In this document: piece by piece, positions 4,732 through 64,000 of the stretch
Layout of the letters: each line of letters starts with the position of its first letter
Position numbering within the stretch: position 1 is the first letter of the stretch
From: Cyanidiococcus yangmingshanensis
Taxonomy: Eukaryota > Rhodophyta > Bangiophyceae > Cyanidiales > Cyanidiaceae
Length of the DNA: 64,000 nucleotides
Direction of reading: 5' to 3'
NCBI GenBank assembly: GCA_013995675.1
Contig: VWRR01000003.1
Coordinates: forward strand, 744,001-808,000
Made by a program: the position numbers and the translations under genes
Notes under the pieces: model-generated
The model's database searches: none
What the model was told of the DNA's origin: nothing
What the model saw: the letters and a program-made list of their open reading frames with translations, nothing else

Positions 4732-6202
4732 ATGAAAGAAGGGCTCAGGGGTTCTGGACGCTGCTCGCCGGTGGGTGCAGGTACGCCTCACGCGTTGGTG
4801 CTGGTACTGGGGCGTCTCGAGCAGTCACCGCGCATGCTGGCTCACGCGACAGCACTGGCTGAAGTGGGGTGCCGCGTCACGCTTGCTGGCTATGGAAGCG
4901 TGGACGAGCATCATCCGTCGATTCAAGTGGTATCGCTCTCGAGCAAAGCGCCAGCGTCCGTGCACGTCGCAACCTCAACGAGGCGGTGTGCAGCTCGCGT
5001 TCTCTATCTTGTCTTGGTCCTGAGCGCTCTTTGGGGTCGTTTTCGGCAAGCGCTTCGCGTTCTGGAGCAACTGCCTCCCTGGGACTTGTTGATCATCCAG
5101 AATCCACCAGCTTTTCCGACATTTTTCCTGACATTGTGGTTGCGATGGAGGCGCATTCGTCGCAAGGCGTTGATCGTCATCGATTGGCACAATACCACGC
5201 ATTCGATCATGGCCGTGAATGAGGCCCCGGGGTTGGCGATAGCCGTTGCACGCCGTCTTGAGTATTTTCTCGGAAAGCGCATCGCGGACGCCCATCTTAG
5301 CGTTACCAGAATACTGCGATCTTGTCTGTTGTTCGAAATGCATCTCGACCCGGAGCGCGTGCTGGTACTCCCTGATCGCCCGTTGCGCGCCTGGATTGAC
5401 CGCCAGCAACGGCATCTCGCGGGCGAGGGCGTACGCTTGGCATTGCGACGAGCATGGTGTACCCGTGTACTGGGTTGCTCCGACGCAGCGCTCGAACGCA
5501 TGGTCACGGAGCCGTGGCTCTGCAGCTCGACGAGCTGGACCCCAGACGAGCCGATGGAGCTTCTCTTTCAAGCAATGGCTGTTTTAGAACGCGAACATGG
5601 CTGGTCCGGTCATCTCTTCATTACAGGTCGTGGCCCCTTGCAGTCGCATTATGTCGAGACGATATGGCCGAAGCTGGGCCTCCACCGATGGCACCTGCAC
5701 GCACTTTGGTTGCCCAGTCGAGCTGACTATGCAGAGCTGCTGTCAATCGCCAACGTTGGAATATCTATGCACATGTCCTCATCTGGCATGGATCTGCCGA
5801 TGAAGGTCTTCGATATGTGGGGGTGCGGAATCCCGGTGGTTGCCTTACTCCTATCCTTGTCTGGAGCAGGAACTTCCATTGTCCAGGCTCTCCACCGAGG
5901 CGCAAGCCACAAAAGCGCCTCCAGAAGATGTCATGGGAGCCTGTTTTACGGACCTCTCCGGTCTCGTTCGAGCGATCCAGCTGGTGAAGGAGCACGAGGA
6001 ACGTTATCGGGCGAATATTGCGCGTACCTGCTCCGCTGATGCGACCTGGCAGTGGGAGTCACAGTACGAACGACGTTTTCTACCGTTCTGGCGAATGCTC
6101 CAGACAGGCGCTCCGCCGGAATCTATATCGGCGGTGAGGAGCGCAAAATCCAGGCCCTTGAATGAGGCGCTCCACAATGACCCGCACCAGCATGGCGAAT
6201 GA
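4732..6202 (+). CDS. ALG1: ALG1-like chitobiosyldiphosphodolichol beta-1,4-mannosyltransferase
   Basis: ALG1 adds the first mannose to GlcNAc2-PP-dolichol on the cytosolic ER face (GT33 family). The frame opens upstream within the tRNA, so the ATG at 4732 (MKEGLRGSG) is preferred. Seen in order: an N-terminal lobe (LVLVLGRLEQSPRM), a hydrophobic stretch near residue 90, LLIIQNPPAFPTF, IDWHNTTHSIM, a C-terminal lobe with CSSTSWTPDEPMELLF, LFITGRGPLQSHY, and the nucleotide-sugar site HMSSSGMDLPMKVFDMWGC. At the TT of 5845-5846 one base must be skipped. The reading then continues as VVAYSYPCLEQE and runs to the stop at 6202, completing a protein of about 490 residues, close to the family length. 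The function is firm; the frame step is probably a sequence error. Confidence 0.88.
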
Positions 6203-6957
6203 GCAGTACCCAGCACAGCATCTAAATCGAATGCGGGATCGAGATCGAACGATGCCGGCGGGAACCCGAGTCTCGCTGGTGCTTGTGTCGAGAGAATGAC
6301 CTGTCGCTGATCCCGCGGTTAACGGCACGCAGACGCGTGCACGCCTAAACGCCTCACCCGCAACGGTGGCCCAACGGCGGTCCATCCACAATGCACAGAG
6401 GACGCTTCGTTACAGAACGCGTGTAAAACGGGTTCTTGATCAGAGTCTTATGCGCGTCCGCTAAGCCAAGCTGGCGGCCATCGCACGAGCCTGAGTCGTC
6501 GATCGTTACCCTAATTTGTTTTCCGGACAAGTTCCCATCTCTCGTTAACCATTTGTTTTGCTATGTCTGGGAGAGCTTCGGGGCTGGCTTTGCAATCGGC
6601 TACCGCAAATCCACGCAGTAATCGAACGTCTATGGCGCGGCGCGTAGCCCGCTTGCAAGCTGTTCCCATTCACAAGGACAGCCTGGGTACTCCGAGCTAT
6701 CGGTGCGGCTACAGCACGTTGGGGATTATGAAACTGCGAATACAAGTTGCCAAGTGTGCAGTTCCTCGCACCTCGGAACCATACACCTCGGCGAACGACG
6801 ACAAGTGTTTCACCGCTGGATCGTTCACGAGCGGCTTGGTGGAACGTTTCCGGCCGCTCCACCAGATCGGCTGGATGAAGTAGGAGCGCTTAAACCCTTC
6901 AACCCCACATCCAGATCGTGTGGCTCGCTTACCGACATGATGGTCCAATTCTCGCTC
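6203..6957. other. Intergenic, nothing recognised
   Basis: About 750 bases between the convergent ends of ALG1 and NOC3. Short overlapping frames occur on both strands without recognisable motifs. No RNA gene or repeat was seen. Confidence 0.45.
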
Positions 6958-61823: not shown

Positions 61824-62208
61824 TGCGTTCATCAGGCGCTGGATCTCGTTTGGGACCCTGGACAGCTCCATGCGGGAGCATTCCATACGCCAACGAATTC
61901 TGGTATTGGAAAAGAATAAAGATCAGATCGGTCGGGTGTCGTTCAAGGACCATCGATCGGAGTCTACCGCTCTCCCCGAGCGCCATGTTCGGGAACGGTT
62001 GCCGAGCCAGCGACCGGGGTCGTCGCCAACCAACGAGGAACCTGGGAGCGCGCTTTTCGGCCACGATGTGTATCCCGTTCACGAGCATAAAGCTCATCCT
62101 GGGGCCTATCAAGCCAGATCAGATACCAGTCGACCACGAACGTTGTCGTGACCATCCACAAAACGTCCCTTTACCAGGTTGTAATGATCCAGGCGCAAGC
62201 GTTGCCCT
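61824..62208. other. Intergenic between convergent NOP4 and TOR
   Basis: About 385 bases of shared 3' region. No feature was recognised. NOP4 may in fact end earlier, which would lengthen this stretch. Confidence 0.45.
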
Positions 62209-64000
62209 CTACCAACAATTACACCAACCGACATACGCTGGGGCCAAGTTCTCCGAGCTCGTCGCCTGCTGAATGAGACGCTCCACTTGCGCTGCGACCG
62301 AGAGTGTCTGTTGCGGTTCAAAGTCACGGCCGCTTAGTTTCTGCGACATGCGCTGGACAATGGCGACAGCTCGTTCGCCTCGGTTCTCGTCACCGAGTGC
62401 CTCCTCGGGGACAGGCTGTGCTGGAATCGGTTGGCCTGCAGCGGCACCCTGTCATCAACGCTCGGTTCGTGGCGCCAGTCCGATGGCCCTGGCTCGGTGA
62501 TGGAGTCTCTGCAATGCCCTTCCTCAATCGCCCCGGTTGTACCAGCATTCTGTTGCTCGAGACGTAGCGCTGCCCGTAACGACATGGTCCCTTGGAGTAG
62601 ACGCAACGACAGCGAGACGCTGGCCTCATGGGCTGCTCTCGACGCTGCCATCCCTCCTGGTCGACATGCTCGCGACGTGGTTGGTCCCTGCTGCTGCCGC
62701 TGCTGGTGACGACCACGACGACGAGCACCACCACTGGTCAAGTCTGTATCTCCATCGACTGCGTCCACGGCTCTCTGAATGTCCGTGGCCGCATCCTGGC
62801 CATCGTTCTGGTCTGCGTCAGAGTCACTAGAGGCCGACACAGGCCGTGCTGGAGGACGACTTGGCCAAACCGCAGGCGTATGGAGCGGTGTACCGACCTG
62901 GACTGCCGCTGTGCCTGTCAATGTCGTCATGGCCGTTGTCGTTGCGATGTTGTTCGCTGGCTGCAGCGTGCGTACCAACAACGGATCGTGCACAAAGATT
63001 TCCAACATGGCCATCAACACGGGCTTGTTGGCTCTGAGGATCTGCATGGTCGATTCACAGGTTGCTCGAAAGATGCCCTCTACGCCAGAGACACCCAGTG
63101 CGCGCACCAACATGCGCGTGAGTCGAAACGGAACCTTCTCGGGATACTTTTCGCGATGCATTGCAGTCTCAAAACAGTCGCCATGGTCAATATGGATCAC
63201 TTTGCCGGTATCACGCGTAATGAGAATGTTCGAAGGGTGTCGATCACCGAGTCCAATGATGTAACCGACCATGGACATGACCGCCAACGAGCGAGCGTAG
63301 TTGGTGCGACGTTCCAGCCACATCTCTGCACTGCGACTGCGCAGCCACATGATATTGGCCAGATCGTTACCGGACGTGTTGGCCAAGACGTACTCGAAAA
63401 TCTCGACTTTTTGGAGCAGCGTTAAGTTGTCATAATCGGGCGCAGCCGACAACATGATTCGATGCTCCACATTCAGGATAATTTTGCGTTGTTCGCGGTA
63501 CTCCCGAATGAGGGCATGCAGGGTGTCGCAGTTCTTGACCCAACCGATGAGACCAACCGACTGGCTCAGTGGCAGCACCGCATAGGTAATGATGGACATC
63601 TCTGGTGGCAGGAGCGTATTCACCAGACCAAAGAACTGTTGAACGCGTTCGTCTTGTCGAAGATCTTCGTGTCCCTTGAGCAGGAACGGATACTCGTGAC
63701 CGTCCGAACCATAGATCGTTAGGGTTCGCGGTCGCTGCTTTGAGCTAATCACGTTCAAAACGGGTGCGAATGAGACGATTGTGACTCGTTCTCCAGTGCC
63801 TGGGACGGCAAGGTCGAGGTTCTGCGCTTCGAGGAGCGCTGGCGACACTTCGGACAACTGCAGCTGGGTCATACTCGAGAGGGACTTGTTGATGCGCCGA
63901 AAAATGGAGTAATAGAGCTCCCAGGCCTGATTCATGTCGGATTCACGACCGCTGGCCAGATAGCGACGGCACCATTCGCGAGCTTCGGCAAGCTCTCGAC
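62209..64000 (-). CDS. TOR: TOR kinase, C-terminal part (FRB end, kinase and FATC domains)
   Basis: TOR is the PI3K-related Ser/Thr kinase that matches growth to nutrients. The frame enters from the right edge inside the FRB domain (EAREWCRRYLASGRESDMNQ, then AWELYYSIFRRI), keeping the Trp and Phe that in animals contact rapamycin-FKBP12. The kinase domain follows: FAPVLNVISSKQRPRTL, YPFLLKGHEDLRQDERVQQF, SVGLIGWVKNCDTLHALIRE, then MVGYIIGLGDRHPSNIL (catalytic Asp, His and Asn). The activation-loop motif reads HIDHGDCFE where HIDFGDCFE is usual. After PVLMAMLEIFVHDPLLVRT comes a low-complexity insertion of about 190 residues. Two same-direction skips (CCC 62517-62519 and CCC 62447-62449 on the plus strand) then lead to VPEEALGDENRG, KLSGRDF and the FATC domain, which ends YVGWCNCW at the stop 62209-62211. 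Confidence 0.95.

What the first reader, a model, noticed from the sequence alone, without database searches (positions are those of the whole stretch)
4732..64000. About 29 same-direction +1 reading-frame steps across twelve conserved genes
Seen directly: ALG1, NOC3, the MIS12-like gene, PCID2, PPR, PUF, NUP43-like, RFC1, the CCCH gene, beta-adaptin, NOP4 and TOR can be read as complete family members only by skipping single bases, about 29 in all. Every step has the same sign, on both strands; random indels would split evenly. Where fixed, the points lie in homopolymers of mixed type (TT, A5, T6, GGG, CCC, CCCC), not in one slippery heptamer. Ten other genes (RAD51, FNR, SDR, YqaJ, INO1, two unnamed proteins, RseP-like, DNMT3-like, NusG) totalling over 13 kb have none, which is more uneven than a uniform error rate predicts. 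Leading explanation: insertion-biased long-read errors left in low-coverage stretches. Alternatives are many real one-base insertions, or translation that tolerates +1 slippage. The lack of a shared motif argues against the last.
Basis: partly seen in the sequence, partly recalled or inferred. Interest (0 to 1): 0.8.

Follow-up and report, generated by a model that had tools for sequence, protein, structure and literature searches.

The report
Frame breaks are genome assembly errors
The repeated one-base frame breaks in this red-alga chromosome are most likely mistakes left in a draft genome assembly, because another sequence of the same species has one such broken gene intact; they are not an unusual way of making proteins.

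Summary
The steps exist in the printed sequence and lean strongly to +1, but are best explained as errors of this assembly. The window lies in a 12.07 Mb, 20-contig genome matching the red alga Cyanidiococcus yangmingshanensis. Frameshift-aware alignment to intact relatives makes 5 of 5 steps in RFC1 and 4 of 4 in the PUF gene +1; Pfam pieces add one each in beta-adaptin, NOC3 and NOP4. TOR fits two +1 or one -1. The bias is genome-wide: 18 +1-type against 3 -1-type frame changes among 38 neighbouring domain pieces. Decisive case: CCT1, on another contig, is broken here by three +1 and one -1. Public protein CCYA_CCYA01G0355 of the same species, on a contig of 1,044,960 bases, is intact and matches 573 of 573 residues once those four steps are allowed; a second source is intact too. 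The model filed for this contig (1,044,797 bases) drops residues at the breaks. No raw reads were available, and no intact same-strain copy of a window gene was found.

The parts
42091..44772 (+). RFC1 gene, broken by five +1 steps in this assembly
   Evidence: Alignment to P0001 with symmetric costs for +1 and -1
42236..42314 (+). RFC1 step 1 (+1), place uncertain: 42314, 42236 and 42293 against three homologs
43616..43617 (+). RFC1 step 2 (+1), TT
   Evidence: Same place against three of three homologs
43693..43702 (+). RFC1 step 3 (+1), near GGG
43733..43742 (+). RFC1 step 4 (+1), near GGG
44692..44694 (+). RFC1 step 5 (+1), CCC
   Evidence: Two of two homologs whose alignment reaches it
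24867..27436 (-). PUF-repeat gene, broken by four +1 steps (near 26367, 25880, 25669 and 25161)
   Evidence: Three of three homologs, P0241-P0243
55805..58649 (+). Beta-adaptin-like gene; +1 between pieces near 56420-56465; possible +1 at T6 55867-55872
   Evidence: Adaptin_N split across frames; codon model at 56464; T6 by eye
6961..9526 (-). NOC3-like gene, +1-type change where the pieces overlap (7970-8076)
   Evidence: NOC3p and sub-threshold CBF in different frames
59365..61820 (+). NOP4-like gene, +1-type change where RRM pieces overlap (60894-61192)
62212..63998 (-). TOR C-terminal part, kinase and FATC in different frames: two +1 or one -1

Best explanation
The steps are consensus errors of this assembly: single extra bases, less often missing ones, many in short runs of one base, left in a long-read draft that was not fully corrected. 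The living alga most likely has intact genes. Shown: the steps, their +1 lean in this genome, an intact same-species copy of CCT1 in another record and in a second source, and an intact 93% identical relative of the window's PUF gene. Recalled: that PacBio continuous reads lean to insertions.
For: CCT1 of this genome needs three +1 and one -1; P0121 (CCYA_CCYA01G0355, contig 1,044,960) then matches 573 of 573 residues, P0122 (source code lgn) 566 of 573, P0123 525 of 573. P0125, the model on a contig of the same length as C1 here (1,044,797), lacks short stretches at three of the four breaks and runs into the wrong frame at the fourth. PMC9812998 says its assembly of 8.1.23 F7 was corrected with short reads (passages). 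Frame changes in six families: 18 +1-type, 3 -1-type, 17 in frame, of 38 hand-picked neighbouring pairs; counting only pairs whose DNA gap fits the profile gap, 10 against 3. They lie on 10 of 20 contigs. PUF has an intact relative P0241, 811 of 855 residues. Codon model: 28 +1 and 4 -1 in 110.5 kb of coding sequence on 20 contigs.
Against: No reads were seen, and no DNA of the other records. For RFC1 the only near-identical hit was the window's own truncated ORF, P0003. P0241 is not the same strain's sequence. In the window the codon model gave 4 +1 and 3 -1. Its false calls on clean genes lean to +1 too (16 against 7 in 164.2 kb), and 6 of its 28 +1 calls sit within two bases of a minus-strand gene's end and look like model artefacts. 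One extra base in one of two 98.7% identical C11 copies could be a real mutation.
Confidence: 0.95

Rival explanations
1. The extra bases are real and fixed in this strain, so the genes are decaying or pseudogenes.
For: One of two near-identical C11 copies carries a frame-shifting base that the other lacks. The RFC1 search returned no intact near-identical copy.
Against: CCT1, essential and single in kind, is intact in another record of the species at 573 of 573 residues. Steps hit conserved genes on 10 of 20 contigs.
Confidence: 0.03
2. The alga tolerates or programs +1 slippage, so the printed DNA is right and proteins are made across the steps.
For: The +1 lean. In 3 of 12 located steps the old frame meets a stop within one codon.
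Against: In the other 9 of 12 the old frame runs on 3 to 64 codons, and the 12 contexts share no motif by eye. CCT1 also has a -1, and its intact copies show that the steps are not needed.
Confidence: 0.01
3. Some downstream frames are separate genes or exons, so part of the listed steps are not frameshifts.
For: MIS12-like, PCID2, NUP43-like and CCCH lack homology support for a split. PMC9812998 gives 36 introns for this species.
Against: In RFC1 and PUF homologs run on across the nine steps as one protein; beta-adaptin's Adaptin_N domain continues with only a few profile positions missing.
Confidence: 0.15

Closest known systems
Residual indel errors that fragment genes in long-read assemblies (start of abstract of PMC12007338 and PMC8812927, seen in search listings only)
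   Same: One-base steps that break conserved genes, many in short runs of one base; intact copies elsewhere.
   Different: Nothing found that sets this case apart; the strong +1 lean is recalled as typical of PacBio continuous reads and was not checked in a paper.
Programmed +1 frameshifting (Euplotes, yeast Ty, antizyme; recalled)
   Same: +1 sign in conserved genes.
   Different: No shared shift site by eye, 9 of 12 located steps not next to a stop in the old frame, a -1 among them in CCT1, intact copies exist.

Membership tests
Assembly indel errors | Another sequence of the same species lacks the step | tested here: met
   CCT1 only: P0121 and P0122 intact. Not shown for a window gene at same-strain level.
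Assembly indel errors | Steps spread over the genome without regard to gene function | tested here: met
   21 frame changes on 10 of 20 contigs in six families
Assembly indel errors | Reads disagree with the consensus at the steps | not testable with these tools
   No reads held
Programmed +1 frameshifting | A shared slippery site, usually at a slow codon or stop | tested here: not met
   12 located steps: contexts differ by eye, stop within one codon in 3 of 12
Programmed +1 frameshifting | The step is present in the DNA of close relatives | tested here: inconclusive
   Relatives' proteins run straight through; their DNA was not seen
Fixed real insertions / pseudogenes | Step present in other sequences of the strain | tested here: not met
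   CCT1: absent from P0121; strain identity inferred from 573 of 573 residues

The most novel reading that the evidence does not exclude
A minority of the steps, in genes not checked against a same-strain copy, are real and are tolerated by +1 slippage in this alga.
Probability: 0.01. Interest if true: 0.85.

Novelty: not a real feature. Interest (0 to 1): 0.06.

Why it matters
It warns users of this genome record: conserved genes on at least 10 of its 20 contigs are split, and one filed gene model drops residues at the breaks. Claims of gene loss, pseudogenes or introns drawn from it should be checked against another assembly of the species.

Tried and rejected
A codon-composition model was tried and is too weak for single genes: with one implanted step in each of 114 tests it made 57 calls of the right sign for +1 and 60 for -1, false calls included. 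It read RFC1 as one +1 and one -1, where homologs show three +1. Near-identical stretches on C11 were compared: 44 and 49 substitutions, five and three gaps, six of the eight of one base; not used as proof. Literature: one search found the likely accession of this record cited once; searches for Cyanidiococcus with frameshift and for the record's prefix listed nothing whose title or abstract start speaks of its errors. A general search on PacBio insertion errors gave listings only.

Full report
What the window is. The window is G000:C14:744001-808000 of a genome of 12,072,675 bases in 20 contigs, about 55% GC. Table 1 of PMC9812998 gives 12.0 Mb, 54.6% GC and 20 chromosomes for Cyanidiococcus yangmingshanensis 8.1.23 F7 (passage). 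A public protein of that species, P0125, lies on a contig of 1,044,797 bases, the length of C1 here. So the genome is of that species. That the record is the draft of Liu et al. 2020 is recalled; one paper cites GCA_013995675.1 for the species.

The steps in the window. With an alignment that charges +1 and -1 alike, RFC1 needs five +1 and no -1 against P0001 and P0002 (four +1 against P0004, which ends before the fifth), and PUF four +1 and no -1 against three homologs. Pfam pieces add one +1-type change each in beta-adaptin, NOC3 (with a sub-threshold CBF match) and NOP4. That makes 12 supported steps, 12 of 12 of +1 type. TOR is two +1 or one -1. ALG1, PPR, the beta-adaptin T6 and one more NOP4 step are by eye. 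MIS12-like, PCID2 and NUP43-like gave no support, and CCCH was only looked at by eye.

Genome-wide and not of one sign only. Eight domain families were searched in the whole genome. Of 38 hand-picked neighbouring pieces from six of them, 18 change frame by +1 type, 3 by -1 type and 17 stay in frame; one of the 18 is the window's beta-adaptin. Counting only pairs whose DNA gap fits the profile gap it is 10 against 3. One of the three, in CCT1, is a true -1; the other two could be two +1. A codon model gave 28 +1 and 4 -1 in 110.5 kb of coding sequence from 20 stretches, 6 of the 28 probably gene-end artefacts. On clean genes it made 16 +1 and 7 -1 false calls in 164.2 kb and called implanted +1 and -1 about equally often, 57 and 60 in 114 tests each. 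In the window it gave 7 and 2, then 4 and 3, so there it does not by itself show the bias.

Why assembly error. CCT1 at C1:208051-209635 is broken by three +1 steps and one -1. P0121, CCYA_CCYA01G0355 of C. yangmingshanensis on a contig of 1,044,960 bases, matches 573 of 573 residues once those four steps are allowed; P0122, from source code lgn, matches 566 of 573. My typed query differed from P0121 at one residue, at a join whose exact place was ambiguous. P0125, the model on the contig of this genome's length, lacks short stretches at three breaks and runs into the wrong frame at the fourth. PMC9812998 states that its assembly was corrected with short reads; that P0121 comes from it is inferred from the tag CCYA. 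In the window, PUF has an intact relative at 811 of 855 residues, while for RFC1 the only near-identical hit was the window's own truncated ORF.

Why not translation. At 12 located steps (five RFC1, four PUF, three CCT1) the contexts share no motif by eye and the old frame runs 0 to 64 codons before a stop; in 3 of 12 it meets one within one codon.

Unevenness. With 29 steps at random, as much clean sequence arises in 6.7% of trials and as many clean genes in 2.2%; with 20 steps 61% and 41% (gene lengths typed roughly). This is mild at most.

Verdict. An artefact of a draft assembly.

Noticed in passing
L015:572-5859 with L026:4151-9429 (inverted); L027:1-3985 with L028:2-3985 (direct), all on contig C11: Two near-identical duplicated stretches (98.96% and 98.7% identical). 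In the direct pair one copy has a single extra base where the codon model calls a +1 step and the other copy has none.
   Followed up: partly
contig C1, protein P0125: A public gene model of CCT1 leaves out short stretches at three frame breaks and ends in the wrong frame, so spurious introns or gaps from such steps may be in public protein sets.
   Followed up: partly
   Followed up: no
window 62400-62700 (-): A long low-complexity linker between the TOR kinase and FATC pieces, where the sign of the frame change cannot be settled.
   Followed up: partly
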